NCBI RefSeq assembly: GCF_032118995.1
Contig: NC_092657.1
Location: 7,193,391 to 7,257,390, forward strand
Reading direction: 5' to 3'
Origin: Asterias amurensis
Taxonomy: Eukaryota; Echinodermata; Asteroidea; Forcipulatida; Asteriidae
DNA: 64,000 nucleotides
Shown here: positions 5,281 through 55,443 of the stretch, in pieces
Layout: the number at the start of each line of letters is the position of its first letter
Position numbering within the stretch: the first letter of the stretch is position 1
Made by a program: the position numbers and the translations under genes
Notes under the pieces: model-generated
Seen by the model: only the letters and a program-made list of their open reading frames with translations
Database searches by the model: none
Told to the model about the DNA's origin: nothing

Positions 5281-5294
5281 TTATTTACCATCTT
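5281..5294 (-). CDS. Gene A terminal coding exon (Lys-Asp-Gly-Lys-stop)
   Basis: Acceptor CTTTAACAG precedes AAGATGGTAAATAA. With the A left from the 6549 exon this reads K-D-G-K-stop. The 3' UTR that follows (GATCTGATGGA.., CAACGAGGAACTG) is matched by the gene B 3' exon at about 32772, which supports it being a real exon. Confidence 0.65.
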
Positions 5295-8200
5295 CTGTTA
5301 AAGACAAGAAGAAATATCTACATTTAAAAAAAAAAATTAACAATAATAATTATGTAAATGTATGTAATTTGAGTTCTTGGAACTAACCAGATTCCGAAAT
5401 CTGAAGGCCTGACCTAGTATGATCATTAATAATCAAACTTACACAAATTGTATCAAACTAGTCAGAGTCAAATCCATTTGAGCAACCGGTTTCAGAGTCA
5501 GTGTAACCAGGATTCTGAGTTAACTGACACAAATTGTAAACTGCGCAGAGTCAAATCCATTTGAGCAACCGGTTTCCGGGTCAGTGTGACCAGGATTCTG
5601 AGTCAACTGACACAAATTGTTTCAAACTGCGCAGAGTCAAATCCATTTGAGCAACCGGTTTCCGGGTCAGTGTGACCAGGATTCTGAGTCAACTGACACA
5701 AATTGTATCAAACTACACAGAGTCAAATCCATTTGAGCAACCGGTTTCCGGGTCAGTGTGACCAGGATTCTGAGTCAACTGACACAAATTGTATCAAACT
5801 ACGCAGAGTCAAATCCATTTGAGCAACCGGTTTCAGGGTCAGTGTGACCAGGATTGTGAGTCGACTGACACAAATTGTTTCAAACTACGCAGAGTCAAAT
5901 TCATTTGAGCAACCGGTTTCAGGGTCAGTGTGACCAGGATTGTGAGTCAACTGACACAAATTGTATCAAACTACGCAGAGTCAAATCCATTTGAGCAACC
6001 GGTTTCCGGGTCAGTGTGACCAGGATTCTGAGTCAACTGACACAAATTGTTTCAAACTACGCAGAGTCAAATCCATTTGAGCAACCGGTTTCAGGGTCAG
6101 TGTGACCAGGATTCTGAGTCAACTGACACAAATTGTATCAAACTACACAGAGTCAAATCCATTTGAGCAACCGGTTTCAGGGTCAGTGTAAACAGGATTC
6201 TGAGTCAACTGACATAAATTGTATCAAACTACGCGGAGTCAAAACCATTTGAGCAACCGGTTTCAAAATCTTGTTGTCAACTTAAATATACGTATTGAGA
6301 GAACCTAAGTACTTCGTTGTGCATGGCACAATGTGTTTTGCATTACTTTAGGACAATTAAAATACAAACCTATATTCGTTTAGCCGTTGCACTAAAGCAA
6401 ATAATAATTTAAAATAAAAATTTAGTTTGAAAATACGGAAAATCTGTCGTATATTTTGTTGTATCAATGAGGTCATTTAAAAAGTTTCCGTGTTGCGAAT
6501 ATTTCAGACCAAATATTAATAAAAAGATAAAAATAAAAGTGTTCTTACTGAAGCAGTATCCAGTGCCATCTTTATCTTGACAGTACTGACCCGCAGGACA
6601 CTGGAATAGTGGTCCACATGTATAGCGCTCTGTAGGGAAGGATAAACCAATACAACATCACCGTTCAACAATGTAAGAGAATGGGCAGCAGTAGAAAAAT
6701 GTTAAGTACAACAAAGGGCTGTTTTGGAAGCAAAATTGGGATGTGAAATCCCCTTGAAAGTGAACATTTGAAATCAATAATAACAGCAATTTCTTGAGAA
6801 AACAAAGCAAGCGGTAATTAAGTTTAAAGGCAGTGGAGACTTGGTAATTACTCAAGATAATTATTGGCATAAAACCTCATTTGGCAATGAGTAATGGGGA
6901 GAGTTTGAGAGTATAAAACATTGTGAGAAACGGCTTCCTCTGAAGTGCCATAGTTTTTGAGAAAGAAGTAATTTTCCATGAATTTGATTTCGAGACCTCA
7001 GATTTAGAATTTCAGGTCTCGAAAACAAGCATCTAAAAGCACACAACTTCGTGTGACAGGGGTGTTTTTTCTTGTATTGTTATCTCGAAACTTCGACGAC
7101 CGACTGAGCTCATACTTTCACAGGTTTGTTATTTTATGCATATGTTGAGATACACCAAATGAGAATACTGGTCTTTGGCAATTACCAATAGTGTGCACTT
7201 TAAGATGTATGCTCGAGATGGGTAAACCTGCACCAAGAGAAAAGAAAAGAACCATCTCCCCTTGTTTGCCAATGGGAAACTTTGGGACGCTAGGTGGCAG
7301 CAGACTTTCCAGGTAAATTTCCATTGTTTACGTAGTTCTGGGCGTGCGCACACGACCGAGAACAATGGATCAGAGTAAGGGGACCCAGATTGTGTTGTAA
7401 ACAAACGAACTCAACTTGCAACAAACTGTTCAGTTTTGCATTCAATGTTAGCGTTCTAAGAGTAGTTCACCAATTAAGTTGATCAAATCCCCATCGAACT
7501 TTTGTAATTCTGTTGCTATGGTTTTATCGAAAGAAATGCAGGATTGGTGAGGATAAAGGAGACTCATGATTGTTCAAAAAAACAAAGCAAGAGGTATTTG
7601 TTTAAGGTGTATGCTCGAGATGGGTATACCTGCACCAAGAGAAAGGAAAAGAACCATCTCCCCTCGCCAATTGTAAGCGCGTCTGATAAACTTGCCATTT
7701 CAACCACCGGGACTATGCCATCATTAAGAAAGAAAGCAGCATTTTGTGACATGAAATTGGCCCAAGGTTTTGAGGACACACAAACCAAACAGCGCCCTCT
7801 ACTGTGTGCTCTGCGCAACCCCAATTCGTCTTGTCACCTCCTACAGCAAGACGATTTATCTCAGATTTGATCATTTGCATAAAGTTATTCTTACATTATC
7901 AAATTGTGATAAGATGTAACACCTTTCATCTCAAAATGTAAAGATATTTTACAATACTACAAACACATTAAGAAAATAAATGAAAAATGAATCTTACTTT
8001 GTTCAGCGAAGTTCCCTTCTTGCCCGTTTTCTAAAAGCATACAACAAAGACAAAATTAAAATTAAAATCAATGGCGTTTATAAATAAACAATGAAATTGC
8101 AAATAATACTTAGAAGTGTCAGAGCTTTTTACAAAGCCTTTACAAAGACTTTTCACCCTCAAAACAGAGACTTTGTTGGCACTAAAGACACTTTAATCAG

Positions 8201-10739
8201 ACGGAAATAGATGCCTGAACTTACCGTAACTTAGTTCTTCTTATAACCATTATAGACGCTTTCGGTAAACAGTATTGTCCAAAGGCCCACATTTCGAAAA
8301 TTTATGCTCAATCGGTCATCAGAGTCGGGAGAAAATAACGGGAAACCCACCCTTGTTTCCGCACGTTTCGCCGTGTCAATCCGTAATTCTCGATGTCGAG
8401 AATTCATAATTTTATTGTTTTAATGCTTTCTCAAAAAGTAAAGCATTTCATGGAATAATATTTCAAGAGAAGTCTTTCACCATTACCTTCTGTAAACCCT
8501 GTAAGTTATTTGTAAATCTGTGAACTTTTATTCATTTTTTTCTGTTGTGAAAGTGTATAATGGCTTTAAATAATATAACTTTTAAGATCTGTTTTGTAAG
8601 CCCGGTACAAAGTTCCAGACGAATCCAAGCAATGTGAGAAAGTTCCAGTCAACGATGCATCAGAGTGAATGCTAGAGGATTTTGTCTTTGTGTCGTGTTG
8701 CTGAGTTATATTGGTTTATTTAGAATACTCACTGCGTTTATTCAACAGACTCTCAAGATTACGGAGAAGCTCCCGAAGGGTTGGTTCATCTGAAGATATA
8801 AATTAAATGAATAAATCGACGATATGAGCTGAAAGTGGCAAACACATTAGAAATGACCGCGATCAGGCTTAGCCTAAAAGCGATGCGTCAACTATACACC
8901 ACACACCGCCACACACATTTGCCGTTTTCTACATTTGCTTAGAGGCAGTGGACACTATTTTAATTACTCAAAATAATGATTAGCATAAAACCTTTCTTGG
9001 TGACGAGTAATGGGGAGAGGTTGATGGTGTAAAACATTGTGAGAAACGGCTCCCTCTGAAGTGACATAGTTTTCAAGAAAGAAGTAATTTTCCAGGGGGG
9101 GGCATGTTTAGTCTGAAGCAATGTATTAAGGCATGGAATTTCGAACAGTAACATGTGTAAAAAATGCACAATTCCAATACACGCTCTTTGCTATGAAAGT
9201 CGCCATCTTGTACGACAAACCGTATGCGCATCCAAACGCGTACTTCAATGAAGCACGCAACATTCCCGGTTTGATTTCTACTGCACATGCACGCATATAT
9301 AACTCTATGATATGCACGCACTCACACACTCACACGCGCACAGACGCCATCTTGTAGGGCAGATTTTTGAACGGTGACGTCATATTCAATACGGTCTTTT
9401 CGCCTTGTCACCTCGTATATCAAGACGATAACTTCAGGTTCTATCATTTGCATAAAGTTATTCTTACACGATCAAATTAATCTAAGATGTTTCACCTTTC
9501 TTCTCAAATTGTCAGCTCAAAATGTAAAACAAAGGCATTTACAATACTACAAACATGTTAAGAAACAACATGAAAAATGAATCTTACTTTCTTCAGCGGC
9601 TTCCCTTTCCTGCGTGTTTTCTAAAAGCATACAACAAATGAACAAAATAAATAATCAACTAAATGTCGTTTATGAAACAATAAAGTTTCGATGCTTGTTT
9701 TTATGTTTGCTGCTGCTGATACTGCTTCCGCCTTTTCCCCTAAAGCCTTTTTGAGATATTTGCTTTAGAAATAATGTTTGTCCCAAGATCCATAAACACA
9801 AATAAGTCTAAAAGATAAAAAGAATAGTGCGGTAAACAGTTCTAAGATGGTGTTATCTTCACCAAAAGAGTTGAGCTTTCTTAGAAAATTCCAATGATGA
9901 CGTAGTTTACTAGTTGTACAACTTGTGTTTTTATCAAACTCCAATTTATCGTCTATAACAGTTTCAATGTACTTTTTATACTCCGTTACTCTTTCAATTG
10001 GCAGTCCATTTATAGTAACTTCTGGTATGGGCGTGCCTCTCTTTCTGAAGTCAATAACCAATTCCTTTGTTTTATTCACATTAATGTCAAGGTCATTTTC
10101 TCTACACCAGTTTTAATTTCGCTGTTGTTGCGTTGCAGTGAGTTAAGTTCTCTGTGGAAGACATACGACTAACAGTTGAAAAATCATCAGCACATTAATT
10201 TGATTAAGGAATGTTTTGATTTTGGAGGGGTACAAGTCCTTTCGTATGAAGCTGAGGGGGTACTTTTTAGTATGTTAATAGTGCTAGTGGTTTTAATTGT
10301 TGTTTTCTTTAATATTTGTCTAAGGGGTCTTTGTGCTTTTTTTGGATGGTGTTTGGGGAGGCTTTCTGCTAACATTGTCCTCGAGCTCAGTGGGTTTGGC
10401 ATGAATCTGTGAGGGTGCACTGTTTTGTTTTTTTAGGGTTTTTAGTCCATTCTATGTTTTTTATTTTTAATTGTTGTCCCTTCCTCTTATCGCTGCGGTG
10501 TTTTGTTGTAGGTGTAGTTTTTTGTTTTCAATAGTCTGGTTTTGCTTGTGTTTTAATGATTTCTTTGTGTGATTTTAAAATGTTTCAGTGCAATCACCTT
10601 TTTATATTGTATAATTATATTTTTATCGTTGGCAGGGGTCTGGTTTTACACATCTTTTGATGACAGTTTTATACTTTTGTTTTAACCTTGACAGCCCCTG
10701 TACAACTTGCAACTATTGTGTATGTCTAAAGATTTAAAA

Positions 10740-10778
<39 letters not shown>

Positions 10779-13700
10779 ATGATCAAGTTATCAGTCTCTT
10801 TTGCTCTGCAGTCATTGGTAGCAAATTTTATACAAAACCGGGGACAGGACACAACCTTGTTGGGTACCTGTATTTGTACTAAGAAATGGTGAGATAGTGG
10901 AGTTTAGCTCCACCTGTTGTGTCCGGTTTGTAAGAAAACTTTGTATCCATAAAACAATATTAGAATCTACATTAAGATCAAGCAGCTTTTTAATTATGAG
11001 GTGAGGCTGATTTTTACAGTACACGAGAAATCTTGAAAATATCCCTACACCTCCTCCAATTAGGATCAGTTACTTCAGGGCCTTTACCTTTTCTTCATAT
11101 GTAGTCATGTGTTCATAACAAAAGTACTCGTGTTGCGAATATTTCAGACCAATATTAATAAAAAGATAAAAATAAAAGTGTTCTTACTGAAGCAGTATCC
11201 AGTGCCATCTTTATCTTGACAGTACTGACCCGCAGGACACTGGAATAGTGGTCCACATGTATAGCGCTCTGTAGGGAAGAACAAACCAACACAACATCAC
11301 CGTTCAACAATGGAAGAGAATGGGCAGCAGTAGAAAAATGTACAACAAAGGGCTGTTTTAGAAGCAAAATTGGGATGTGAAATCCCCTTGAAAGTGAACA
11401 TTTGAAATGAATAATAACAGCACTTGATTGAGAAAACGAAGCAAGCGGTAATTAAGTTTAAGATGTATGCTCGAGATGGGTATACCTGCACCAAGAGAAA
11501 AGAAAAAAACATCTCCCCTCGCCAATTGTAAACGCGTCTGATGAACTTGCCATTTCAACCACCGGACATTTGAAGAAGAAACAGAGTAAGGGGACCCTGA
11601 TTGTGTTGTGAACAAGCGGACTTAATTTGCAACAAACTGTCCAGTTTTACATTCAATGTTAGCGTTTTAAGAGTAGGTTCACCACTTAAAGACATGGACA
11701 CTATTGGTAATTGTCAAAGACTAGCCTTCACAGTTGGTCTATCTCAACATATGCATAAAATAACAAACCTGTGAAAATTTGAGCTCAATCGGTCGTCGAA
11801 GTTGCGAGATATTAACGGAAGGAAAAACACCCCTGTCACACCATGGTCACACAGAGTTGTGTGCTTTCAGATGCTTGATTTCGAGACCTCAACTTCTAAA
11901 TATGGGGTCTTTAAATCAAATTCGTGGAAAGTTAATTCTTTCTCGAAAACTACGTCACTTCAGAGGGAACTGTTTCTCACAATGTTTTATACAATCAACC
12001 TCTCCCCGTTCCTCGTATTCAAGAAAAGTTTTATGCTAATAATTATTTTGAGTAATAACCAGAACACTGGTCTTTGACAATAACCAAAATTAGTAAAATT
12101 AGATTACCGCTCAAGACTCCACGCAATAATTGTTATGCTAAGTAAACAACAGCTTAAAACCAGTCTAAAGCAATGTATACGGCATGGAATTTTGGCCAGT
12201 ATCATGTGTAAAATAAGCCAGCTATTTTTGTGCTATTAGCAAATGTTGGGCTTAAGTAGCTCTATAAAATTAGCCCTGGTTCGCATAGACCTTTTCGCAA
12301 ATACTGGGGCGCGCGCGTAAAGCTTGGAATTAGGTGCATTGTGGTCTAGCTGATTACAAATTTGATTCATATATATCCCACAATGCACCTCATTTAACAG
12401 TCTGCGCTTGCGCATTGGTATTTGCGATAAGGTCTATGACAAGCAAACCAAACAGCGCCCTCTACTGTGTGGTCGGCACAATTCCAATACATGCTTTTTT
12501 GCTATGAAAGTCGCCATCTTGTAGGGCAAACCGTATGCGCGTCCAAACGCGTACATCAATGAAGCACGCAACATTCCCGGTTTGATTTCTACTTACACAC
12601 ACTCAAAAGCGCACAGACGCCATCTTGTAGGGCAGATTTTTGAACGGTGACGTCATATTTAATACTGTCTATTCGCCTTGTCACCTCGTATATCAAGACG
12701 ATAACTTCAGGTTCTATCATCCGCATGAAGTTATTATTACACGATCATCTAAGATGTTCCACCTTTCTTATCAAATTGTCAGCTCAAAATTTAAAACAAG
12801 GCATTATACAATACTACAAACATTTTAAGAAAATAAATGAAAAATGAATCTTACTTTCTTCAGCGGCTTCCCTTTCCTGCGTGTTTTCTAAAAGCATACA
12901 ACAAATGAACAAAATGAATAATCAACTAAATGTCGTTTATGAAACAATAAAATTTCGCCGCTTGTTTTTGTTGTTGCGGCTGCTAATACTGCTTCCGCTT
13001 TTTTCCCATAAGCCTTTATGAGATATGGCGGACACAAGCTACAACACCATAAGGTTTAAATTTGTGTGTATTATACCCAAACCAAACAGTACATTCCTGT
13101 CACGTCCGCCATACCTCAAAAAGGCTTTAGTCGGTAGGTCTTTTTGTTTGTAGTTCGGTTCTGTTTATTATTCTTGCATGCTTAACAACTCTTAAGAAAT
13201 AATGTCTGTACCAAGATCCATAAACACAAATAAGTCTAAAAGATAAAACACTTTGTAAAATAGTGCGGTAAAACAGTTCTAAAATGGTGTTATCTACACT
13301 AAAAGAGTATTAGCTCTTTGCGAAAATACAAACGTTGACGTAGTTTACTAGTTGTACAACTTGTGTTTTTATGAAACTTCAATTTATCGTCTATAACAGT
13401 TTCAATGTACTTATACTCCGATACTATTTCCATTGGCAGTCCATTTATAGTAACTTCTGGTATGGGCGTGCCTCTCTTTCTGAAGTCAATAACCAATTCC
13501 TTTGTTTTATTCACATTAATGTCAAGGTCATTTTCTCTACACCAGTTTGAATTTCGCTGTTGTTGCGTTGCAGTGAGTTAAGTTCTCTGTGGAAGACATA
13601 CGACTAACAATTGAAAAATCATCTGCACATTAATTTGATGATTAAGTTATCAGTGTCTATCGCTCTGCGGTTGTTTTTATAAATTGTATACAAAACCGGG

Positions 13701-16700
13701 GACAGGACACAACCTTGGTGGGTACCTGTATTTGTACTAAAAAAATGGGAGATAGTGGAGTTTAGCTTAATCTGTTGTTTCCGTTTTGTAAGAAAACTGT
13801 GTATCCATGAAACAATATTAGAATCTACATTAAGATCAAGCAGCTTTTTAATCATGAGGTGAGGCTAATTTTTACAGTAAAGGAGAAATTATTTATTGAC
13901 GCTCAAACTTTAATTCTCTAATCAGTTATTTTTGCCCGTCGAGTTATTCCCCCTCCAAATAAAGATTCACACAGACTAGTGTAATTGTCCAAACGTCGAC
14001 GCCGGACATCAATCTTGGAAATATCCCCACATCTCCTCCAAATAGGATCACTTACTTCAGGGCCTTTACCTTTTCTTCACGTGTTTTCACGTGCTCATTC
14101 AAAAAGTTTCTGTGTTGCGAAACATTTCTGACCCCCCAAAAAGTATAACTAAAGAACAAAAATCAAAGTGTTCTTACTGAAGCAGTATCCAGTGCCATCT
14201 TTATCTTGACAGTACTGACCCGCAGGACACTGGAATAGTGGTCCACATGTATAACGCTCTGAAGGGAAGGACAAACCAATACAACATCAGCGTTCAACAA
14301 TGTAAGAGAATGGGGAACAGTAGAAAAACGTTAAGTACAACAAAGGGCTGTTTTAGAAGCAGAATTGGGATGTGAAATCCCCTAGAAAGTGAACATTTTA
14401 AGTCAATATTAACATCACTTTCCTGACAAAACAAAGCAGGAGGTATATTTTGTTTAAGGTGCTACCGCAGGGAAGCTTTCTTCTATCATAATCTTCAAAC
14501 TGTGTAAGTTTAATGTAAATCTGTTGACAATGTGTTTTTAAAATTAGATTACCGCTCGAGACTCCACGCAATTGTTATGCTATGTAAACAACGGCTAAAT
14601 ACCAGTCTGAAGCAATGTATTAAGGCATGGAATTTTGACCAGTAACATGTGTAAAAAATGCACAATTCCAATACACGCTCTTTGCTATGAAAGTCGCCAT
14701 CTTGTATGACAAACCGTATGCGCATCCAAACGCGTACATCAATGAAGCACCCAACATTCCCGGTTTGATTTCTACTGCGCATGCACGCATATATAACTCT
14801 ATGATATGCACGCACTCACACACTCACACGCGCACAGACGCCATCTTGTAGGGCAGATATTTGACAGTGACGTCATATTCAATACGGTCTTTTCGCCTTG
14901 TCACCTCGTATTTCAAGACGATAACTTCAGGTTCTATCATTCGCATAAAGTTATTCTTACACGATCAAATTAATCTAAGATGTTTCACCTTTCTTCTCAA
15001 ATTGTCAGCTCAAAATGTAAAACAAAGGCATTATACAATACTACAAACATGTTAAGAAACAACATGAAAAATGAATCTTACTTTCTTCAGCGGCTTCCCT
15101 TTCCTGCGTGTTTTCTAAAAGCATACAACAAATGAACAAAATAAATAATCAACTAAATGTCGTTTATGAAACAATAAAGTTTCGATGCTTGTTTTTATGG
15201 TTGCTACTGCTGATACTGCTTCCGCCTTTTTGAGATATTTGCGGACACAATGCTACAACACTATAAGGTTTGGGTAAATTTGTGTGTATACACCCAAACC
15301 AAACAGTAGGCTCCTATCACGTCCGCCATACCTCAAAAAGGCTTTAGTCGGTAGGTCTTTTTGTTTGTAGTTCGGTTCTGTTTATTAGTCTTGCATGCCT
15401 AACAACTCTTAAGAAATAATGTTTGTCCCAAGATCCATAAACACTAATAAGTCTAAAAGATATAAAGAATAGTGCGGTAAAACAGTTCTACATAGGTGTT
15501 ATCACCAAAAGAGTTGAGCTTGGTAGAAAATTCCAATGATGACGTAGTTTACTATTTGTACAACTTGTGTTTTTATCAAACTCCAATTTATCGTCTATAA
15601 CAGTTTCAAAGTACTTTTTATACTCCGTTACTCTTTCAATTGGCAGTCCATTTATAGTAACTTCTGGTATGGGCGTGCCTCTCTTTCTGAAGTCAATAAC
15701 CAATTCCTTTGTTTTATTCACATTAATGTCAAGGTCATTTTCCCTTCACCAGTTTAATTTTGCTGTTGTTGCGTTGCAGTGAGTTAAGTTCTCTGTGGAA
15801 GACATACGACTAACAATTGAAAAATCATCAACATATTAATTCGAAGATCAAGTTATCAGTCTCTATTGCTCTGCAGTCATTGGTATAAAATTTTATACAA
15901 AACCGGGGACAGCACACAACCTTGGTGGGTACCTGTATTTGTAAAAAGAAATGGTGAGATAGTGGAGTTTAGCTTAACCTGTTGTGTCCGGTTTGTAAGA
16001 AAACTTTGTATCCATAAAACAATATTAGAATCTACATTAAGATCAAGCTGCTTTTTAATTATGAGGTGAGGCTGATTTTTACAGTACACGAGAAATCTTG
16101 AAAATATCCCTACACCTCCTCCAAAAGGGATCAGTTTCTTCAGGGCCTTTACCCTTTCTTCATATGTAGTCATGTGTTCATAACAAAAGTACTCGTGTTG
16201 CGAATATTTCAGACCAATATTAATAAAAAGATAAAAATCAAAGTGTTCTTACTGAAGCAGTATCCAGTGCCATCTTTATCTTGACAGTACTGACCCGCAG
16301 GACACTGGAATAGTGGTCCACATGTATAGCGCTCTGTAGGGAAGAACAAACCAATACAACATCACCGTTCAACAATGGAAGAGAATGGGCAGCAGTAGAA
16401 AAACGTTCAGGTACGACGATATAAGGAGTGTTTTAGAAGCAAAATTTCGGATGTGAATTGAAATCTCCTAGAAATGTTAAAATCAATATCAAACTTTTTA
16501 AATAAATATTAACATCACTTTCCTGAGAAAACAAAGCAAGTAAGTTTAAGATGTATGCTCTAGATGGGTAAACCTGCACCGAGAGAAAAGAAAAAACCAT
16601 CTCCCCTCGCCATTTGTAAGCGCGTCTGATAAACTTGCCATTTCAACCACCGGGACTATGCCATCATTAAGAAAGAAAGCAGCATTTTGTGACATGAAAT

Positions 16701-19700
16701 TGGCCCAAGGTTTTGAGGACACACAAACCAAACAGCGCCCTCTACTGTGTGCTCTGCGCAACCCCAATTCGTCTTGTCACCTCCTACAGCAAGACGATTT
16801 ATCTCAGATTTGATCATTTGCATAAAGTTATTCTTACATTATCAAATTGTGATAAGATGTAACACCTTTCATCTCAAAATGTAAAGATATTTTACAATAC
16901 TACAAACACATTAAGAAAATAAATGAAAAATGAATCTTACTTTGTTCAGCGAAGTTCCCTTCTTGCCCGTTTTCTAAAAGCATACAACAAAGACAAAATT
17001 AAAATTAAAATCAATGGCGTTTATAAATAAACAATGAAATTACAAATAATACTTAGAAGTGTCAGAGCTTTTTACAAAGGAGAATTATTCGTTGACTTTT
17101 CACCCTCAAAACAGAGACTTTGTTGGCACTAAAGACATTTTAATCAGACGGAAGTAGATGCTGAACTTACCTAAACTTGGTTTTCTTAAATAATATAACT
17201 TTTAAGATCTTTTTTGTAAGCCCACTACATCGTTTCAGACGAATCCAAGCAATGTGAGAAAGTTCCAGTCAATGATGCATCAGTTTGAATGCTAGAGGAA
17301 TTTGTCTTTGTGTCGTTTTGCTGAGTTATATTGGATAATTGAGAATACTCACTGCGTCTATTCAACAGACTCTCAACATTACGGAGAAGAGAAAAGATCA
17401 ATGCAGAAGTTATTATTAGTGACCTGAGATGATGAATTGTAAAATGCAAACTAAATCAACACATTTACCAAGCAGTGCTTTATCGCACTCAGGCGGCCTG
17501 GGTACAAAACGATTGCAGTCAAGTCTACTCACCTAGAAACTAATTCGTTGCATCGTTTTAGGAAACATACGTTTCAACCATTGTTTTATATGGTGGCCCT
17601 GAAGGGACACAGCCAGTCGTGAATATTTTTGCGACGTCGTATTATTTATTCACGACAAGTCGCGAATATTTTGGCGACGTCGCGAATATTTTGGCGACGT
17701 CGCGAATATTTTCACGACTAGTCGCGAATATTTTCACGACGTCTTGAATAATTCTGCGACTAGTCGTGAATAATTCTGCGACTAGTCGTGAATAATTCTG
17801 CGACTAGTCGTTAATAAATTCGCGACTAGTCGTGAATAAATTCGCGACTAGTCGTGAATATTTTTTTCAGTAGCTTGAGTGTGTAATTCTTACACGGCAC
17901 GCGTAGAGAGCCAAGCTATGAAGATTGTTGCCACTCTGTGTATGGGGCCCATGTTTTATCCAGTGGAATCGTTATCTAAGTTCGAAAAAACAGTGTCTGA
18001 TTTTCATCAATATTTCGGGGGTTTTCAAGGTTGAATTACTCCAAACCCAAATAATTCTGAATGCTAAAGGAATAATCTTTCAGTTAAACTTGGTAGGGGA
18101 TTACGTGATGCGTTGCACCCTGCCGTGACGAAACGAACTCGCATTTCAAGTTGTAAATAACAACGCAAATTGCTCTAACAATTCAGGTAAATTAATTGTC
18201 AAATTTATTGCTGAAATTGTCTACACATTATAATTAAACTTATCATTGGGTTGTTTGGAAAATTTACCTATTGTTGGTCCGACTACGCCGGGGTTAAAAA
18301 TTGATGTTTTCATTTCGTAAAAAATAGTTGTTTTAATGAGTGTGTGAGACGTCGCACTTCTAAAAGTTAATTTTTCTAGCGTTTATGTTTTTCAAAACGG
18401 GTCATAAATTGATAGTGTCAAGGTCATCGAAAATTACATATTATTTTGGACAGGAAGGTCGTATGATCATGATTTTTATTTTATTTAAAATGTTGAGATT
18501 TGCTTGTTGGGATTATTATGATATAAACTCAAAAATGAAATTTACTCGATATTCTTCATTACGAAGGAGCGGGTGACATATAACGTTATGTTTTTTTCTG
18601 AAGAGTGAAAGTGCCAACGTTTATTGCCTAGCATAGGATAGCCTACTCCTACTTAAGTACTAGTAAAACTATAACGTTAGGCCTAGGCCTACCGTTAGGG
18701 CCATACGTTAACGTTACTTTTGTTTAAACAACCCACCTTCGATTTGCATCAGTCGGAATTCTCCTCCGAAACCATCATCGTACGGGACAGCTTTTACTTA
18801 GTCTTACTAAGCCGTCAACGTGAATACAGTAATTACACACTCAAGCTACTGAAAAAATATTCGCGACTAGTCGTGAACTTATTCGCGACTAGTCGCAGAA
18901 ATATTCACGACGTCATGAAAATGTTCGCGACTAGTCGTGAAAAATTCGCGACGTCGCTAAAATATTCACGACGTTGCAAAAATATTCGCGACTTGTCGTG
19001 AACAAATTCACGACGTCTCAAAAATATTCACGACTGGCTGTGTCCCTTCAGGGCCACCATAGTTTTACTCTGGACAACATTTGGGGTTTCAAAATCAAGC
19101 ATCTGAATGCACACAACTTCGTATGACAAGTGTGTTGTTTGGGGTTTTTTTTTCAGTGTTATCTCGCAACCTCGACGACCATTTGAGCTCAAATTTTCAC
19201 AGGTTTGTTATTTTATGCATATGTTAAGATACACCAAGTGATAAGACTGGTCTTTAACAATAACTAATAGTGTCCAGTGTTTTTAAACACGTTATATTAC
19301 AAATAGTTTGTACACGCCAAGTCTCACATTGACCGTCAGTGTTCAATTTTACTAAGTCGGTTCTCAGTGCGCGTGCAATGTGACTTTTATGCACGATTGC
19401 TCTAGCGCGTGAGGGCAGAAACCCAGCGTGTGCCAGTGCAAGTTTACGAGTGCTCGACACAACGCTTTTTCAATGGTGTACATGCCGCACTCGATCAAAA
19501 CTCATTCGATCAAAATATTAGCCAGGTTTTTATCGATATTTTAACAGTATTCCTGAAACTAAAAGAAGACACTGAGGTGGTGGTCAATTGAAATTTTCGA
19601 AATAGAGGTTTGTAATTAAGTGTTTTTCTTTCGTTAAAAACTGCTAAGTTATGGGTTTCCGCAGCACGCTTGACACACGGCATACGTACACACGTACACA

Positions 19701-20613
19701 CTGTGTAGCTTGACGATCGATATATGATGACAACGCTAAAAAGTTTGTCGAACGAACCATTGCTGCACAGGGTCAGGTTGTACGGTAATAATAAACATGT
19801 GGACTGAAAAGAGTGCTAATATATAAGACTGTCACATACAACACCCCAGCCAATGAATTTGATTTAAATATTTTAATTAAAAAAATTATAATAATAACAA
19901 TGAAGCGGATTTATGCAGGCGAGTCCGCCTGCGCCCCTCCGGAATAATATATCGAATCAAACGGCCCCACACGCAGAGTGGAACAGGTCCATTTTGCGTA
20001 TGCCACATGCAAAGGTCATGCAAGTTGCAAAGCCAACTTAAGCGTATGGTACCTGTACTTAAACTCCGCTTAGCGGGTGTATTAGTTTAACGAAATCAGT
20101 AAACAAAGGTGGCACCATCGTCCTTGTGATCAGAAGTACCTGGTACTTGTGTGGCAACAAAATCACTGGTGCTCGGGAAGGACGTGGCGGTTGTTCACAA
20201 CGCATCGGGGCGATAGAGCAAGCATTCTTGCGCGCTCTCATTACTTACAACGTAAAACGGGTCATGAAGTGACATGAACTTGAAATTTGATTACTCACGA
20301 TTTTGAGACCTCTTCAAGTCCAGAAGGCGCTCCAAAAGGGCGACCTCATCTGACAATGCAAACGAAAAGAAAAAGCACTATCAGATGACCCTACCATGCT
20401 TAGACCATTTTTAGTCAATAGCAACGAGGAATATAAATACATAGATTGCATATCTAACGATGCCTAATATTTGTTTCTTTCTTGCAAAGGAGCGAATGTT
20501 TCAAAACAGCGACAAACATATTAATAATTCTTTAAATATGTGTATTTACCATCTTGGTATGCTGACACACAGCCGACCACCACAAGCAACGCTAGGAGAG
20601 TGTAGCCCTTCAT
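5281..20613 (-). CDS. Gene A: multi-copy four-cysteine peptide precursor (13 coding exons)
   Basis: Unrecognised family; a secreted prepropeptide by architecture. Coding exons in order: signal peptide 20613-20550, propeptide 20349-20299, spacer 16973-16941, peptide 16333-16253, spacer 15114-15082, peptide 14258-14178, spacer 12887-12855, peptide 11268-11188, spacer 9620-9588, helix 8789-8733, spacer 8030-7998, peptide 6629-6549, tail 5294-5281. All have AG/GT borders and phase-1 junctions, and joined by eye they read open for about 224 residues. The peptide (C-x5-C-x5-C-x8-C, with GPLFQCPAGQYC) occurs four times, each preceded by Lys-Arg created at the splice junction and followed by Lys plus an acidic spacer such as NTQEREAAEE. 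Convertase cleavage at KR would release four identical peptides (inference). The leader exon lies at 27303-27410. The gene resembles multi-copy neuropeptide, antimicrobial and toxin precursors; transcript evidence is lacking. Confidence 0.75.
5441..6264. repeat. 86-bp tandem satellite, about 9.6 copies, in the last intron of gene A
   Basis: Unit of 86 bp containing the palindromes TCAAATCCATTTGA and CCGGTTTCCGG and the pair GGGTCAGTGTGACC. Copies are very similar, differing mainly at TATC/TTTC, CGG/AGG and CTGAG/GTGAG positions. It fills most of the intron between the last peptide exon and the terminal exon. Confidence 0.95.
6549..6629 (-). CDS. Gene A peptide exon 4 (last copy)
   Basis: 81-nt symmetric exon: acceptor CCTACAG, donor GTAAGAAC. 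Encodes RYTCGPLFQCPAG then QYCQDKDGTGYCF, giving spacing C-x5-C-x5-C-x8-C. The first two bases, AG, complete a Lys codon with the preceding exon's final A, so KR precedes the peptide. By eye identical in sequence to the copies at 11188 and 16253. Confidence 0.8.
6838..7199. mobile_element. Palindromic TTAA element, family 1 (complete)
   Basis: Begins AGGCAGTGGAGACTTGGTAA and ends CCAATAGTGTGCACT, with TTAA on both sides. The duplicated unit at 11455-11470 lacks it and has a single TTAA in the same flanks (TAATTAAGT..GATGTATGCTC), so that is a natural empty site. Non-coding; long imperfect inverted arms meet near GAGACCTCAGATTTAG. Confidence 0.9.
7998..8030 (-). CDS. Gene A spacer exon (NGQEGNFAEQ)
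   Basis: 33-nt microexon, acceptor GCTTTTAG, donor GTAAGATTC. Phase 1-1, coding NGQEGNFAEQ between Lys codons formed at both junctions. Nearly identical to the copy at 16941. Confidence 0.75.
8260..8545. mobile_element. Palindromic TTAA element, family 5 (partial)
   Basis: Matches the complement of the 39277-39633 element: ATTGTCCAAAGGCCCACA, CAATCGGTCATCAGAGTCG, then AAAGTAAAGCATTTCATGG and GTAAACCCTGTAAGTTA. Both ends are eroded, so exact borders are uncertain. Lies in a gene A intron. Confidence 0.65.
8733..8789 (-). CDS. Gene A helix exon (EPTLRELLRNLESLLNKR)
   Basis: 57-nt symmetric exon, acceptor ATCTTCAG, donor GTGAGTATTC. Codes EPTLRELLRNLESLLNKR, a strongly amphipathic helix ending in Lys-Arg, likely propeptide with its own convertase site. 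Paralogous exons lie at 36470 (gene B) and 58247 (gene C); a deleted copy lies at 17353. Confidence 0.8.
8937..9095. mobile_element. Palindromic TTAA element, family 1 (half copy)
   Basis: Left arm only: AGGCAGTGGACACTATTTTA through GAAAGAAGTAATTTTCCA, then abrupt loss of similarity. Truncated; in a gene A intron. Confidence 0.7.
9588..9620 (-). CDS. Gene A spacer exon (NTQEREAAEE), unit 2
   Basis: 33-nt microexon, acceptor GCTTTTAG, donor GTAAGATTC. Codes NTQEREAAEE, acidic, phase 1-1. Same sequence as the spacers at 12855 and 15082. Confidence 0.75.
9770..11100 (-). mobile_element. LINE fragment (CR1/L2/Rex-like reverse transcriptase), unit 2 copy
   Basis: Minus-strand pieces of a non-LTR reverse transcriptase. 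10812-11024 carries the conserved TGTQQGCVLSPVLY block. Near 10150-10200 lies an ADDFS-type active-site segment in a shifted frame. 9765-10079 carries MNKTKELVIDFRKRG..VTINGLPIERV..IDDKLEFDKNT, typical of the RT thumb in CR1/L2/Rex-type LINEs. The 5' part (endonuclease) and 3' end are missing, so it is dead. Its RT part is split by another retroposon (10205-10783). Related fragments sit at the same place beside the peptide exons of units 3 and 4, so it inserted before those duplications. Confidence 0.8.
10205..10783 (+). mobile_element. Nested retroposon 3' fragment with (AAAT)n tail
   Basis: Present only in the unit 2 LINE fragment; units 3 and 4 run uninterrupted at this point (TTAATTTGAT..AAGTTATCAG). 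It ends in about eleven AAAT repeats (10734-10779), the short-tandem-repeat tail typical of several LINE clades. No protein was recognised in it; the flanking duplication is too short to define. Confidence 0.65.
11188..11268 (-). CDS. Gene A peptide exon 3
   Basis: 81-nt four-cysteine cassette with the same borders as the 6549 exon and, by eye, the same coding sequence. Immediately downstream of the unit 2 LINE fragment in plus-strand order. Confidence 0.8.
11690..12085. mobile_element. Palindromic TTAA element, family 1
   Basis: Begins TTAA-AGACATGGACACTATTGG and includes the paired GAGACCTCA and GGGGTCTTT arms; the far end (CTTTGACAATAACC) has lost its terminus. Unit 1 (around 7475, CACCAATTAAGTTG) lacks it at the matching place. 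Confidence 0.75.
12295..12437. mobile_element. Short inverted-repeat element (ATAGACCTTTTCGCAAATAC ends)
   Basis: About 143 bp with inverted ends ATAGACCTTTTCGCAAATAC and TATTTGCGATAAGGTCTAT and inner arms GGTGCATTGTGG / CCACAATGCACC. A near-identical copy lies at 53411-53564. Non-coding MITE. Confidence 0.85.
12855..12887 (-). CDS. Gene A spacer exon (NTQEREAAEE), unit 3
   Basis: 33-nt microexon identical in coding sequence to those at 9588 and 15082; acceptor GCTTTTAG, donor GTAAGATTC. Confidence 0.75.
13010..13129. mobile_element. Short inverted-repeat element (AAGCCTTTTTGAG ends)
   Basis: Inverted ends AGCCTTTATGAGATATGGCG and CGCCATACCTCAAAAAGGCT around ACCCAAACCAAACAG. Copies at 15225-15346 and, diverged, at 41157-41272. 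Non-coding. Confidence 0.75.
13190..14100 (-). mobile_element. LINE fragment (CR1/L2/Rex-like), unit 3 copy
   Basis: Same two RT pieces as at 9770-11100: TGTHQGCVLSPVLY at 13619-13855 and MNKTKELVIDFRKRG at 13299-13514, here without the nested retroposon. The ADDFSIVSRMS segment follows GCVLSPVLY in a shifted frame, so the element is broken. Confidence 0.8.
14178..14258 (-). CDS. Gene A peptide exon 2
   Basis: 81-nt four-cysteine cassette. By eye it differs from the others by one silent change (CGT for CGC in the first Arg). Acceptor is CCCTTCAG instead of CCCTACAG. Confidence 0.8.
15082..15114 (-). CDS. Gene A spacer exon (NTQEREAAEE), unit 4
   Basis: 33-nt microexon, same coding sequence as 9588 and 12855, phase 1-1. 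Confidence 0.75.
15225..15346. mobile_element. Short inverted-repeat element, second copy
   Basis: Same family and same relative position as 13010-13129 in the duplicated unit: CTTTTTGAGATATTTGCGG at one end, CCGCCATACCTCAAAAAGGC at the other. Confidence 0.7.
15405..16190 (-). mobile_element. LINE fragment (CR1/L2/Rex-like), unit 4 copy
   Basis: RT pieces at 15877-16173 (TGTHQGCVLSPVLY) and 15488-15721 (MNKTKELVIDFRKRG). Uninterrupted by the unit 2 retroposon. Same position relative to the peptide exon as in units 2 and 3. Confidence 0.8.
16253..16333 (-). CDS. Gene A peptide exon 1 (first copy)
   Basis: 81-nt four-cysteine cassette, by eye identical to those at 6549 and 11188, acceptor CCTACAG, donor GTAAGAAC. 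Confidence 0.8.
16941..16973 (-). CDS. Gene A spacer exon (NGQEGNFAEQ), first copy
   Basis: 33-nt microexon like that at 7998. Joined to the 20299 exon, the split codon is C+AA (Gln), giving LKRSQN-Q-NGQEGNFAEQ. Confidence 0.72.
17353..17389 (-). pseudogene. Deleted helix exon in gene A
   Basis: Matches the 3' part of the EPTLRELL exon (..NVESLLNRR, donor GTGAGTATTC), but about 28 bases that held the acceptor and first codons are missing compared with 36470-36526. The flanks on both sides remain alignable (GAAAAGATCAATGCAGAAG). It is probably skipped; because the cassette is symmetric, skipping keeps the frame. Confidence 0.7.
17589..19061. mobile_element. DNA transposon relic with satellite-built inverted ends
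   Basis: 1473 bp. Ends TATGGTGGCCCTGAAGGG and its complement. Each end continues for about 200-290 bases as a tandem array of a roughly 22-bp unit built on palindromes CGACTAGTCG, CGACGTCG and CGACAAGTCG joined by GAATATTTT spacers, then CAGTAGCTTGAGTGTGTAAT in inverted orientation on both sides. Flanked by GTTTTA on both sides; gene C (complement of about 58043-58056) has the unoccupied site with one GTTTTA, so the target duplication is 6 bp. The inner 900 bp has no convincing ORF, so it is non-autonomous. Superfamily not assigned. Confidence 0.85.
19085..19287. mobile_element. Palindromic TTAA element, family 1 (half copy)
   Basis: Right arm only: TTTCAAAATCAAGCATCTGA through GGTCTTTAACAATAACTAA to GTGTCCAGTGTTTTTAA. 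It abuts the satellite-ended transposon region. Confidence 0.7.
19288..20298. other. Gene A intron sequence, nothing recognised
   Basis: Short ORFs on both strands overlap one another and show no motif. No repeat family of this window was recognised. Confidence 0.35.
20299..20349 (-). CDS. Gene A propeptide exon (EVALLERLLDLKRSQN)
   Basis: 51-nt symmetric exon, acceptor TTGCATTGTCAG, donor GTGAGTAAT. Codes D-EVALLERLLDLKRSQN, an acidic amphipathic helix with an internal Lys-Arg. Copies at 37786 (B), 45436 (D) and 56845 (C) share the exon and its upstream GTTTGCATTGTCAG. Confidence 0.82.
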
Positions 20614-20618
20614 TGTCT
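20550..20618 (-). CDS. Gene A signal-peptide exon
   Basis: Acceptor GATTAAACAG, then AGACA and ATG at 20613-20611. Codes MKGYTLLALLVVVGCVSA followed by YQD: a textbook signal peptide with small residues before the likely cleavage after Ser-Ala. Donor GTAAATAC, phase 1. The ATG is chosen because it is the first after the leader junction, has A at -3, and is conserved in all four units. Confidence 0.85.
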
Positions 20619-20852
20619 CTGTTTAATCGAAAAGGAAAAGGGAAGTTATTTTTCCCTGCAAAAAAAAAGGTTCAAATTCAATATGAAAATTGTTTTCTTC
20701 GATACAGAATGTTGAAATAGACCTCCGGGTTACTAAGTAATTATTACAAACCAACAATTGAAGTTGTTATTGTTCTACAACATCTAATCAAGTGAAAGAT
20801 TTCGTACATTAAACATCTCGAAATGAGCACATCTCAAAACTTGGCGAAAAGA

Positions 20853-21158
20853 AAAAGACAATGTGTAGGTTACAGGGCACTGTGTATGATCTAAAAGACA
20901 ATGTGTAGGTTACAGGGCACTGTGTATGATCTAAAAGACAATGTGTAGGTTACAGGGCACTGTGTATGATCTAAAAGACAATGTGTAGGTTACAGGGCAC
21001 TGTGTATGATCTAAAAGACAATGTGTAGGTTACAGGGCATGATCTAAAAGACAATGTGTAGGTTACAGGGCATGATCTAAAAGACAATGTGTAGGTTACA
21101 GGGCACTGTGTATGATCTAAAAGACAATGTGTAGGTTACAGGGCACTGTGTATGATCT
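20853..21158. repeat. 40-bp minisatellite, about 8 copies
   Basis: Unit of 40 bp with GACAATGTGTAGGTTACAGG and GCACTGTGTATGATCT. Two adjacent copies in the middle share a 10-bp deletion, giving 30-bp units. In intron 1 of gene A. Confidence 0.95.
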
Positions 21159-33483: not shown

Positions 33484-33581
33484 CATCTAAGACTTCACCT
33501 TAACGCAGTATCCAGTGCCTTTAAAATCTACACAGGTTAAGCCCTCGGCACACTGGAATAGTGCTCCACATTGATAGCGCT
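33484..33581 (-). CDS. Gene B peptide exon with stop codon
   Basis: Acceptor TCCCCACAG, donor GTAAGACAA after the stop (TAG at 33487-33489). Codes 30 residues with C-x5-C-x5-C-x8-C and a basic tail VKVKS absent from gene A, where the same place is a donor site after Phe. Because the stop is inside, this cassette cannot be followed by further copies. Confidence 0.8.
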
Positions 33582-36500
33582 CTGTGGGGAGAAGACAGAA
33601 CAATACAACATCAGTGAAAGAGAGAATTAACGGTACTGGTACGGTGTTTACGTGTTGTGTGCGTTTCGTTACAGGATAAGAATGACGGCCTCCTCCAAAC
33701 TTGCAACAAACTTTCACCTTTTTCCATAATTGCTGGCGGATAAAATGTGGGCTCACCAGTTCAGATAATTTAACCCTCATCAAATTATTGCAATTCTGTT
33801 TTCATTGGTGTAAAGGATAAAAACACATCGATTGTTTAATCTTATTCTAGAGGGTTTTATCATTAAGTTATTCTTACATGATCAAATTGTTCTTTTACGC
33901 TCCATCTTTCTTCTCAGCTCAAATTATTAAGGCATTATACAATAAAATTGTTAAAATTTGATAACATGAATGAAAACATAATGCTTACTTTGTTCAGCGA
34001 ATTTCTCTTCTTGCGTTTCAACTAAAAGCACAACAAAAAGAAAAAATAATTAATCAAATGGCGTTCATAGAAAAATCAGGATATTGCAAAGGTTCTTAAT
34101 GCTGCTGCTGCTGTTACTATTGCTGCAGCTGCTGTTACTATTGCTGTTGTTATTGCTTCTGCCGCTGCTGTTACTATTGCTGCTGCTGTTGCTGTTACTA
34201 TTGCTGCTGCTGCTGTTACTATTGCTGCTGCTGCTGCTGTTACTATTGCTGTTGTTATTGCTTCTGCTGCTGCTGTTACTATTGCTGCTGCCGCTGCTGT
34301 TACTATTGCTGCTGCTGCTGCTGTTACTATTGCTGTTGTTATTGCTTCTGCCGCTGCTGTTACTATTGCTGCTGCTGTTGCTGTTACTATTGCTGCTGCT
34401 GCTGCTGTTACTATTGCTGTTGTTATTGCTTCTGCCGCTGCTGTTACTATTGCTGCTGCTGTTGCTGTTACTATTGCTGCTGCTGCTGTTACTATTGCTG
34501 CTGCTGCTGCTGTTACTATTGCTGCTGCCGCTGCTGTTACTATTGCTGCTGCAGCTGCTGTTACTATTGCTGTTGTTATTGCTTCTGCCGCTGCTGTTAC
34601 TATTGCTGCTGCTGTTGCTGTTACTATTGCTGCTGCTGCTGTTACTATTGCTGCTGCTGCTGCTGTTACTATTGCTGTTGTTATTGCTTCTGCTGCTGCT
34701 GTTACTATTGCTGCTGCCGCTGCTGTTACTATTGCTGCTGCTGCTGCTGTTACTATTGCTGTTGTTATTGCTTCTGCCGCTGCTGTTACTATTGCTGCTG
34801 CTGTTGCTGTTACTATTGCTGCTGCTGCTGTTACTATTGCTGCTGCTGCTGCTGTTACTATTGCTGTTGTTATTGCTTCTGCTGCTGCTGTTACTATTGC
34901 TGCTGCCGCTGCTGTTACTATTGCTGCTGCTGCTGCTGTTACTATTGCTGCTGCCGCTGCTGTTACTATTGCTGCTGCTGCTGCTGTTACTATTGCTGTT
35001 GTTATTGCTGCTGCTGCTGCTGTTACTATTGCTGCAGCTGATGTTACTATTGCTGCTGCCGCTGCTGTTATTATTGCTGCTGCAGCTGATGTTACTATTG
35101 CTGCTGCTGCTGCTGTTACTATTGCTGTTGTTATTGCTTCTGCTGCTGCTGTTACTATTGCTGTTGTTATTGCTTCTGCTGCTGCTGTTACTATTGCTGC
35201 TGCCGCTGCTGTTACTATTGCTGCTGCTGCTGCTGTTACTATTGCTGCTGCCGCTGCTGTTACTATTGCTGCTGCTGCTGCTGTTACTATTGCTGTTGTT
35301 ATTGCTGCTGCTGCTGCTGTTACTATTGCTGCAGCTGATGTTACTATTGCTGCTGCCGCTGCTGTTATTATTGCTGCTGCAGCTGATGTTACTATTGCTG
35401 CTGCTGCTGCTGTTACTATTGCTGTTGTTATTGCTTCTGCTGCTGCTGTTACTATTGCTGCTGCCGCTGCTGTTACTATTGCTGCTGCTGCTGCTGTTAC
35501 TATTGCTGTTGTTATTGCTGCTGCTGCTGCTGTTACTATTGCTGCAGCTGATGTTACTATTGCTGCTGCCGCTGCTGTTACTATTGCTGTTGTTATTGCT
35601 TCTGCTGCTGCTGTTACTATTGCTGCTGCAGCTGATGTTACTATTGCTGCTGCTGCTGCTGTTACTATTGCTGTTATTATTGCTGCTGCTGCTGCTGTTA
35701 CTATTGCTGCTGCCGCTGCTGTTACTATTGCTGCTGCTGCTGCTGTTACTATTGCTGTTATTATTGCTGCTGCTGCTGATGTTACTATTGCTGCTGCCGC
35801 TGCTGTTACTATTGCTGCTGCTGCTGCTGTTACTATTGCTGTTGTTATTGCTGCTGCTGCTGCTGCTGTTACTATTGCTGCAGCTGATGTTACTATTGCT
35901 GCTGCCGCTGCTGTTATTATTGCTGCTGCTGCTGTTACTATTGCTGCTGCCGCTGCTGTTACTATTGCTGCTGCTGCTGCTGTTACTATTGCTGTTACTA
36001 TTGCTGCTGCTGCTGTTGCTTGCTGTTACTATTGCTGCAGCTGATGTTACTATTGCTGCTGCCGCTGCTGTTATTATTGCTGCTGCTGCTGCTGTTACTA
36101 TTGCTGTTGTTATTGCTGCTGCTGCTGATGTTACTATTGCTGCCGCTGCTGTAACTATTGCTGCTGCTGCTGCTGTTACTATTGCTGTTGTTATGCTCCT
36201 GTTGCTGCTGATTTTGTTGCTGTTGCTGCTGTTGTTGTTGTTAGTGCTGCTGCCGCCGCCGCCATTTAAAGTTAACGTTGTAGTTTTACTATAGAAAGAG
36301 ATATATCTTAAGATATTTTCGTGAAAAAATTACTACGAGTTTCAGACGAATCTAAGCAATAAGAGTAATTCCAGTCGACTATCCCATGATGCATCAGTGT
36401 GAATGCTATATAGGATTGTTGTTTTTGTTTCGTGTTGCTGAGTTACATTGGACTAATTAGAATACTTACTGCGTTTATTCAACAGACTCTCAACATTACG

Positions 36501-39076: not shown

Positions 39077-39081
39077 TGTCT
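39013..39081 (-). CDS. Gene B signal-peptide exon
   Basis: Acceptor GATTAAACAG, AGACA, ATG at 39076-39074, then MKGYTLLALLVVVGCVSA and YQD. Donor GTAAGTAG. Same encoded protein as gene A's exon. Confidence 0.85.
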
Positions 39082-45435: not shown

Positions 45436-45486
45436 GTTTCTGATGCCTCTTCAAATCAAGAAGGCGCTCCAAAAGGGCGACCTCAT
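45436..45486 (-). CDS. Gene D propeptide exon
   Basis: 51 nt, acceptor TTGCATTGTCAG, donor GTAAGTTAT; EVALLERLLDLKRHQK. Confidence 0.72.
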
Positions 45487-46601
45487 CTGACAATGCAAAC
45501 TACAATAACTACAGTCAATCATAGGTTTCCCGCTCATTCTTTTGACAATTATAAGCAGCCAACATGCGTTATTCTTTTTTGCAGGATATTTTGTTCATCT
45601 TTCAAGCAAAGAATAATTGCGCCTTAGAATAAACAAAGATGACCTTTCAAATGAAATAGTCCACAGTTACACAGTTTTGTGATCAATTCATTTACCGTTG
45701 CACATTACATGTAGTCATTGTCAAAGCCACTGGACACTATTGTTTTTTTTACTCAAAATATTTTGTTGGCTTAAAACTTATTTGTTAACGAGCAACCGCG
45801 GGAGCTGTTGGTATTTTTATTGTGAGAAACGGCTCCCTCTGAAATAACATAAAATTTTGAGAAAGTGGTAATTTCTCACTCAAATAAGCCTTTTATTATG
45901 CATCTGAAAGCACACACAGTTGTGCAACAAGGTTTTTTTTATTCAATGTTCTTTTGCATTTTTGACGACCAATTGAGTTCAAATTTTCACATGTTTGACT
46001 GTAATTTTATATGTTGGGGTACATCAAGTGAGAAAAATTGTCTCTGACAAATATCTATAATGTGTCCAGTCTCTAAACCCCTCGTTAAAAATGTGTACAA
46101 TCACCATGCTGTTTGAATGTTTTTAACATCCAATAACATCAAGTTTCACCCAAAAGGGTCGCTTATTTTTTCACAGAAAATTGGCAGCAACTTTAACAGT
46201 AGCACCACTCTGCTAAATTGGATAACGATTATAAGCATGGTAAAAACAACCTCCTGTATCGACAATAATGGCTGTAAAAAAATTCACTTTTCACAAAATG
46301 AAATTGAACGACGGTCTCAACTAAAGAGGCAAATTGTTTTAATAAATGCAAGACCGTTAAACAAGCTCCTGTTTTGTGACGAAGTGAGCAATCAACAAGA
46401 AATATGACTGGTAATGACCAGACAGCTATCGACCATTACTTCAAAACTGATTTTGAAATTTTATATCTTTCAACTCAAAAATAAAACATGTAATTCGCTC
46501 ATAATTAATATTGATTATTTGTTTGTTTACTATTTACCTTGTTGGTATGTTGACACACAGCCAAGCACAACAAGCAATGCTAGCAGAGTGTAACCTGTCA
46601 T
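45436..46601 (-). CDS. Gene D: truncated or 5'-only peptide-precursor unit
   Basis: Two coding exons: signal 46601-46538 (MTGYTLLALLVVLGCVST then YQQ) and propeptide 45486-45436 (EVALLERLLDLKRHQK). Joined they read open for about 38 residues in the same phase as genes A-C. The cassettes that should follow were not found before gene B's leader at 42966. Either the unit lost its 3' half, or its exons serve as an alternative 5' end that splices into gene B, whose signal exon could be skipped because phases match (inference). The leader exon upstream is interrupted by a palindromic element. Substitutions M-T, A-T and Q-Q against A and B suggest relaxed constraint. Confidence 0.55.
45724..46072. 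mobile_element. Palindromic TTAA element, family 1 (diverged)
   Basis: Left AGCCACTGGACACTATTG, right ATAATGTGTCCAGTCTCT. Lies in the gene D intron between signal and propeptide exons. Confidence 0.7.
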
Positions 46602-55374: not shown

Positions 55375-55443
55375 AGACAATGAAGGGCTACACACTAATA
55401 GCGTTGATTGTTGTGTTCAGCTGTGTGTCAGCATACCAAGATG
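55375..55443 (+). CDS. Gene C signal-peptide exon
   Basis: Acceptor CTTCGATTAAACAG, AGACA, ATG at 55380, donor GTAAATACA. Phase 1 end. Confidence 0.85.

What the first reader, a model, noticed from the sequence alone, without database searches (positions are those of the whole stretch)
5281..20613. Gene A encodes four identical cysteine-rich peptides in one precursor
Thirteen small exons joined at canonical splice sites read open for about 224 residues: signal peptide, then four copies of a 26-residue cassette with C-x5-C-x5-C-x8-C, each preceded by Lys-Arg and separated by acidic spacers. Three copies look identical at DNA level and the fourth has one silent change, while the flanking introns carry large insertions. 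I know of no named family with this sequence; starfish cysteine-rich antimicrobial peptides with four cysteines are described, but homology is not shown here.
Basis: partly seen in the sequence, partly recalled or inferred. Interest (0 to 1): 0.88.

Follow-up and report, generated by a model that had tools for sequence, protein, structure and literature searches.

The report
Four-copy gene for starfish peptide KASH2
A starfish gene appears to make four copies, in one precursor, of KASH2, a small disulfide-bonded body-fluid peptide already known from the common starfish and linked to injury; the peptide is known, and the four-copy gene layout and its paralogue cluster look new.

Summary
On the minus strand, 13 exons (20613 to 5281) join at GT/AG sites into a 224-residue frame with four identical 4-cysteine cassettes; one of the four 81-base exons has a single silent difference. 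[quoted passage not shown] What is added: (1) four copies in one precursor, built from symmetric phase-1 exons; (2) only the last copy carries a Gly-Lys amidation signal, while the other three run into an acidic spacer without a dibasic site directly behind the cysteines, so they should give 36- and 53-residue products, not the synthesised 26-28-mer; (3) exact repeats up to 118 bases in the message could collapse in short-read assembly; (4) a cluster: gene B (one peptide, probably KASH1) and two partial paralogues. The antimicrobial-peptide link is unsupported: the core is net-neutral. Function is inferred: a secreted, injury-linked coelomic-fluid peptide. No transcript could be tested.

The parts
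20550..20613 (-). exon 1 (coding): start codon and signal-like MKGYTLLALLVVVGCVSAYQD
   Evidence: amino-acid identity to exon 1 of genes B, C, D 100, 85 and 81%
20299..20349 (-). exon 2: DEVALLERLLDLKRSQN
   Evidence: conserved in genes B, C, D
17353..17389 (-). remnant of a D exon; a 28-bp deletion removed its acceptor and first 20 bases; not part of the message
   Evidence: alignment with D exons of genes B, D and the 8.7 kb copy
16941..16973 (-). exon 3, spacer S1 (NGQEGNFAEQ)
16253..16333 (-). exon 4, cassette P1 (KR|YTCGPLFQCPAGQYCQDKDGTGYCF)
15082..15114 (-). exon 5, spacer S2 (KNTQEREAAEE)
14178..14258 (-). exon 6, cassette P2 (one silent change, CGC to CGT)
12855..12887 (-). exon 7, spacer S3
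11188..11268 (-). exon 8, cassette P3
9588..9620 (-). exon 9, spacer S4
8733..8789 (-). exon 10, D exon (NEPTLRELLRNLESLLNKR)
7998..8030 (-). exon 11, spacer S5 (KNGQEGNFAEQ)
6549..6629 (-). exon 12, cassette P4
5244..5294 (-). exon 13, terminal: KDGK, stop TAA at 5283-5281, then 3' UTR; aligns to sequence downstream of gene B's stop. The end 5244 is where the search string ended, not a mapped polyA site
33484..39076 (-). gene B, single-cassette paralogue (7 coding exons, 129 aa, ends KR|YQCGALFQCAEGLTCVDFKGTGYCVKVKS); probably KASH1
45436..46601 (-). gene C fragment: exons 1 and 2 only; no KASH-like cassette found before gene B
55380..58303 (+). gene D: exons 1, 2, acidic exon and D exon on the opposite strand; no KASH-like cassette found up to the window end

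Best explanation
Gene A is the KASH2 (Kartesh-2) gene of Asterias rubens or a close relative. It encodes a secreted polyprotein from which a convertase cutting after Lys-Arg frees four copies of a 4-cysteine peptide with a disulfide-directed beta-hairpin (Cys I-III, II-IV). The likeliest role is a humoral peptide of coelomic fluid that rises after injury, with the tandem copies multiplying yield per message. Shown here: gene structure, four identical cassettes, identity to KASH2, conservation of the cassette against diverged introns. From print: fold of the synthetic peptide, presence in coelomic fluid, upregulation after injury, no effect on human fibroblast growth. Inferred: that the full 13-exon message is made; that copies 1 and 2 leave as 36-residue and copy 3 as 53-residue peptides with an acidic C-terminal tail; that only copy 4 is amidated; the physiological role.
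For: 26 of 26 residues identical to 8V2M and 8V2U, E 8e-16 and 1e-15. The K at position 26 is coded across the junction from a P exon to the next exon, so the published peptide itself supports splicing there. Fold, injury link and convertase-cleaved precursor: PMC11891777, parts 1-4 of 5 read. 0 amino-acid changes in 4 cassettes although 24 of 133 near-flank columns vary (binomial P 3e-6 for none of 64; rough, since copies are related). Gene B has the same signal and pro-exons with one cassette at its end.
Against: No transcript or peptide of the four-copy form was seen. The published acid peptide reads FK-G at positions 25-27 whereas window copy 4 reads FK-D-G-K and copies 1-3 FK-N, so no window copy matches beyond residue 26. 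The injury link rests on a proteome study that is not held and is known to me only through PMC11891777, whose fibroblast test was negative. No receptor or target is named there.
Confidence: 0.72

Rival explanations
1. The cassettes are alternatives: because every internal exon is phase 1-1, splicing joins one or a few P exons to the terminal exon, giving the single-cassette KASH2 precursor described in print; extra cassettes are spare copies.
For: Joining any of the four P exons (with one spacer exon before it) to the terminal exon stays open and gives the same 80-residue single-cassette precursor. The paper describes one mature region per precursor.
Against: All four cassettes kept free of amino-acid change while flanks diverged. 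No splice data either way.
Confidence: 0.18
2. Antimicrobial peptide of the PpCrAMP kind.
For: Reviews give PpCrAMP as a cysteine-rich starfish peptide with a predicted beta-hairpin (passages).
Against: Core net side-chain charge 0, tailed forms -3 and -4; no sequence comparison possible; PMC11891777, the only paper found for KASH2 with Asterias, reports no antibacterial test in the parts read.
Confidence: 0.12
3. Protease inhibitor or structural cysteine-rich repeat (TIL-like or lustrin-like).
For: Four-copy protein scores above Pfam cut-offs for TILa (50.4 bits) and Lustrin_cystein (47.7); weak PDB likeness to eggshell membrane modules (E 0.057 for the gene A cassette, 0.00036 for gene B's peptide).
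Against: One cassette alone scores 21.1 and 18.2 bits, below both cut-offs of 27: the high scores come from summing four identical copies. Matches cover only part of each profile. Gene B's peptide matches neither.
Confidence: 0.07
4. The four copies are an assembly artefact of one cassette.
For: Three of four cassettes are identical.
Against: Introns beside the cassettes differ by 6-16.5% between copies and carry different insertions; spacers S1/S5 differ from S2-S4.
Confidence: 0.03

Closest known systems
KASH2 / Kartesh-2, Asterias rubens (PDB 8V2M, 8V2U; PMC11891777)
   Same: Residues 1-26 identical; signal peptide, acidic stretch, dibasic site before the cysteines; C-x5-C-x5-C-x8-C
   Different: Four cassettes rather than the one mature region described; residue 27 on differs (N in copies 1-3; DGK in copy 4; G in the published acid peptide)
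KASH1 / Kartesh-1, Asterias rubens
   Same: Gene B fits its description in print: 28-30 residues for KARTESH peptides, no amidation signal, four cysteines
   Different: Its letters are in a figure I could not see, so gene B = KASH1 is inferred; gene B differs from the gene A cassette at 9 of the 25 residues compared
Disulfide-directed beta-hairpin toxins of arachnids (U1-LITX-Lw1a, J-ACTX-Hv1c)
   Same: Fold and, for U1-LITX-Lw1a, Cys I-III, II-IV pairing according to PMC11891777
   Different: The paper judges convergence; very little sequence likeness beyond the cysteines
PpCrAMP, Patiria pectinifera
   Same: Small starfish cysteine-rich peptide, beta-hairpin predicted (reviews, passages)
   Different: Sequence not available here; KASH2 core is not cationic

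Membership tests
KARTESH (KASH) peptides | Mature sequence of KASH2 | tested here: met
   26/26 identical; residue 27 on differs
KARTESH (KASH) peptides | Signal peptide, acidic region, convertase site, four-cysteine mature region | tested here: met
   translation, read by eye (no signal or cleavage predictor run); definition
KARTESH (KASH) peptides | C-terminal amidation signal Gly-Lys/Arg (KASH2) | tested here: inconclusive
   Present only behind copy 4 (FKDGK); absent behind copies 1-3
Disulfide-directed beta-hairpin fold | Hairpin with Cys I-III, II-IV | not tested
   Taken from the NMR structure of the identical synthetic core; native pairing unknown according to the paper
PpCrAMP-type antimicrobial peptide | Sequence homology | not testable with these tools
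   No PpCrAMP sequence was seen
PpCrAMP-type antimicrobial peptide | Cationic peptide (general AMP feature, recalled) | tested here: not met
   Net side-chain charge 0 for the core, -3 and -4 tailed, -1 for the copy 4 amide
Pfam TILa | One domain reaching the gathering score | tested here: not met
   21.1 bits against 27 for one cassette; four copies together 50.4
Pfam Lustrin_cystein | One domain reaching the gathering score | tested here: not met
   18.2 bits against 27 for one cassette; four copies together 47.7

The most novel reading that the evidence does not exclude
KASH2 is really a four-peptide polyprotein whose copy number has been hidden: exact repeats up to 118 bases would make short-read assembly report one cassette. 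It yields two kinds of product from identical cores, three acid-tailed forms (36, 36 and 53 residues) and one amidated form, so the peptide synthesised and tested so far (26-28 residues) is not the main native one.
Probability: 0.4. Interest if true: 0.55.

Novelty: new variant of a known kind. Interest (0 to 1): 0.42.

Why it matters
KASH2 is, according to PMC11891777, the first peptide outside arachnids reported with this fold; its function is unknown and the activity test reported there, with short synthetic forms, was negative. If three of four native copies carry an acidic tail, that test did not use the main native peptide. The locus also suggests how a single-peptide gene became a four-copy one: in gene B the cassette exon holds the stop codon, while in gene A it ends in phase 1 and so can be duplicated without breaking the frame, the old 3' UTR exon now supplying the last codons.

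Tried and rejected
Antimicrobial peptide homology: no sequence to compare, charge argues against. TILa/lustrin membership: fails on a single cassette. Gene conversion confined to the cassette exon: silent sites give P 0.018 with 150-bp flanks but 0.16 with near flanks, so not decisive; selection on the amino acids is enough. Positive selection between genes A and B: in the cassette dN 0.305 and dS 0.324, so no excess of dN over dS; only the contrast with the signal, second and D exons (dN 0.008, dS 0.103; Fisher on N sites P 9e-8; on S sites P 0.2) is clear, and the spacer exon changes as fast (dN 0.339, dS 0.097), so fast change is not confined to the cassette. Cassettes for genes C and D: tblastn, a six-frame four-cysteine scan of the coding strand of each and a splice-aware scan gave nothing like a KASH cassette; one search did list one internal four-cysteine candidate (42619-42494, minus) and five terminal ones, all dismissed by eye as unlike the family and without Lys-Arg in the expected place. 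A very different cassette would be missed. Earlier report of KASH2 among A. rubens neuropeptide precursors: a text search of PMC4772807 for two stretches of its sequence found none (sequences in figures are not searchable). NCBIfam: one sub-threshold repeat match, 15.2 bits against 25. 'copies', 'tandem' and 'repeat' do not occur in the main text of PMC11891777; its figures and supplement were not seen, and the 2019 proteome paper is not held, so a multi-copy precursor may be in print there. Paper searches run.
Full report
WHAT IS THERE. The gene is on the minus strand. Thirteen exons from 20613 to 5281 join at canonical GT/AG sites into 224 codons and a stop: a 21-residue N-terminus with a hydrophobic, signal-like stretch (MKGYTLLALLVVVGCVSAYQD; judged by eye), an acidic exon, then spacer and cassette exons in the order S1 P1 S2 P2 S3 P3 S4 D S5 P4 T. 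Internal exon lengths are all multiples of three and the frame crosses each junction in phase 1. Each cassette exon of 81 bases completes Lys-Arg at its start, then YTCGPLFQCPAGQYCQDKDGTGYCF. P1, P3 and P4 are identical; P2 has one silent change.

IDENTITY. A PDB sequence search finds 8V2M and 8V2U, both 'Kartesh 2', E 8e-16 and 1e-15, identical over 26 of 26 residues. The source paper (PMC11891777, parts 1-4 of 5 read; part 5 not read; figures and supplement not seen) describes KASH2 of Asterias rubens: found in coelomic fluid, upregulated after injury, precursor with signal peptide, acidic region and convertase site, synthetic peptide with a disulfide-directed beta-hairpin, Cys I-III and II-IV, and no effect on human fibroblast growth. 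It describes one mature region, and the words copies, tandem and repeat do not occur in its main text. It also says that KARTESH and CHUPA homologues occur in other echinoderms, but that no usable KASH2 homologue was found outside the A. rubens genome. The window is therefore probably from A. rubens or a near relative; the species could not be settled (the genome search did not complete).

WHERE THE WINDOW DEPARTS FROM PRINT. The published acid peptide has G at residue 27 (residue 28 was not displayed). In the window copy 4 ends FKDGK and stops, and copies 1-3 continue FKNTQEREAAEE. Directly behind the cysteines of copies 1-3 stands only one Lys, with no basic residue at the upstream positions that monobasic cutting usually needs (a rule recalled, not tested). 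If cutting is at Lys-Arg alone, copies 1 and 2 give 36 residues, copy 3 gives 53, and copy 4 gives a 27-residue amide (masses and charges).

IS THE FOUR-COPY LAYOUT REAL AND KEPT? Flanking introns differ between cassettes by 6.0-16.5% over 150 bp each side (6 of 6 pairs), while 1 of 81 exon columns varies against 79 of 260 flank columns (40 gapped columns dropped) and 24 of 133 nearer ones, from 100 bases upstream to 50 downstream (17 gapped columns dropped; summed). No amino-acid change in four copies has binomial P 3e-6 with the nearer flanks; copies share ancestry, so this is a guide only. Silent sites alone are not decisive (P 0.16 near, 0.018 wide). Flanks show S2 and S4 at 1.4%, S1 and S5 at 2.7%, and P1 and P3 at 6.0%, which suggests that the array grew in more than one round. 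A first D exon at 17.37 kb lost its acceptor in a 28-bp deletion.

HIDDEN COPIES. The spliced coding sequence has exact repeats up to 118 bases or just over (one repeated word at k=118, none at 120; 119 not tried). De Bruijn assembly of short reads with usual word lengths would tend to fold these into one cassette, which could explain why one mature region is described; no assembly was run. That is a hypothesis; the splicing alternative (any P exon joined to T gives the same 80-residue precursor) explains it as well.

THE CLUSTER. Gene B (39076-33484, minus) has 7 coding exons and 129 residues with one cassette, YQCGALFQCAEGLTCVDFKGTGYCVKVKS, fitting KASH1 as described (28-30 residues, no amidation signal). 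Between A and B the signal, second and D exons differ at about 1 of 129 nonsynonymous sites, the cassette at about 15 of 59 (Fisher P 9e-8; silent sites P 0.2). In the cassette dN and dS are about equal (0.305, 0.324), so this is fast change relative to the pro-region, not proof of positive selection; the spacer exon changes as fast (dN 0.339, dS 0.097). Gene B's cassette exon contains the stop codon; gene A's exon ends earlier and in phase 1, and gene A's last exon aligns to sequence downstream of gene B's stop. This suggests that loss of the stop made the cassette exon symmetric and so free to multiply. Gene C (46601, minus) shows exons 1 and 2 only; gene D (55380, plus) shows exons 1, 2, the acidic exon and D, with no KASH-like cassette up to 64000. 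They may be fragments; C could also be an alternative 5' end for gene B.

FUNCTION. Best supported: a secreted humoral peptide of coelomic fluid tied to injury, made in several copies per message. Target unknown. Antimicrobial action is possible but the core is neutral and the tailed forms acidic. Pfam's TILa and lustrin matches arise from adding four copies and fail for one.

VERDICT. Known peptide, new gene layout as far as my searches show: a new variant of a known kind. Interest is moderate, because it gives concrete tests of which native form exists and of how a peptide gene multiplies its cargo.

Noticed in passing
45436-46601 (minus): Orphan exons 1 and 2 of a KASH-like gene upstream of gene B without a recognisable cassette; could be a fragment or an alternative first pair for gene B.
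   Followed up: partly
55380-58303 (plus): KASH-like gene on the opposite strand with four 5' exons in frame but no recognisable cassette within the 5.7 kb to the window end.
   Followed up: partly
34100-36253: Two-kilobase low-complexity array of short trinucleotide-rich units in the intron of gene B just before its spacer and cassette exons.
   Followed up: no
5436-6265: 86-bp tandem array, 9.7 copies, in the last intron of gene A.
   Followed up: no
20853-21158: 40-bp tandem array, 8 copies, beginning 240 bases upstream of the gene A start codon, in possible promoter sequence.
   Followed up: no
20614-20635, 39077-39098, 55358-55379: A shared GATTAAACAG just before AGACA-ATG in genes A, B and D looks like a splice acceptor, hinting at an unfound non-coding first exon.
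   Followed up: partly
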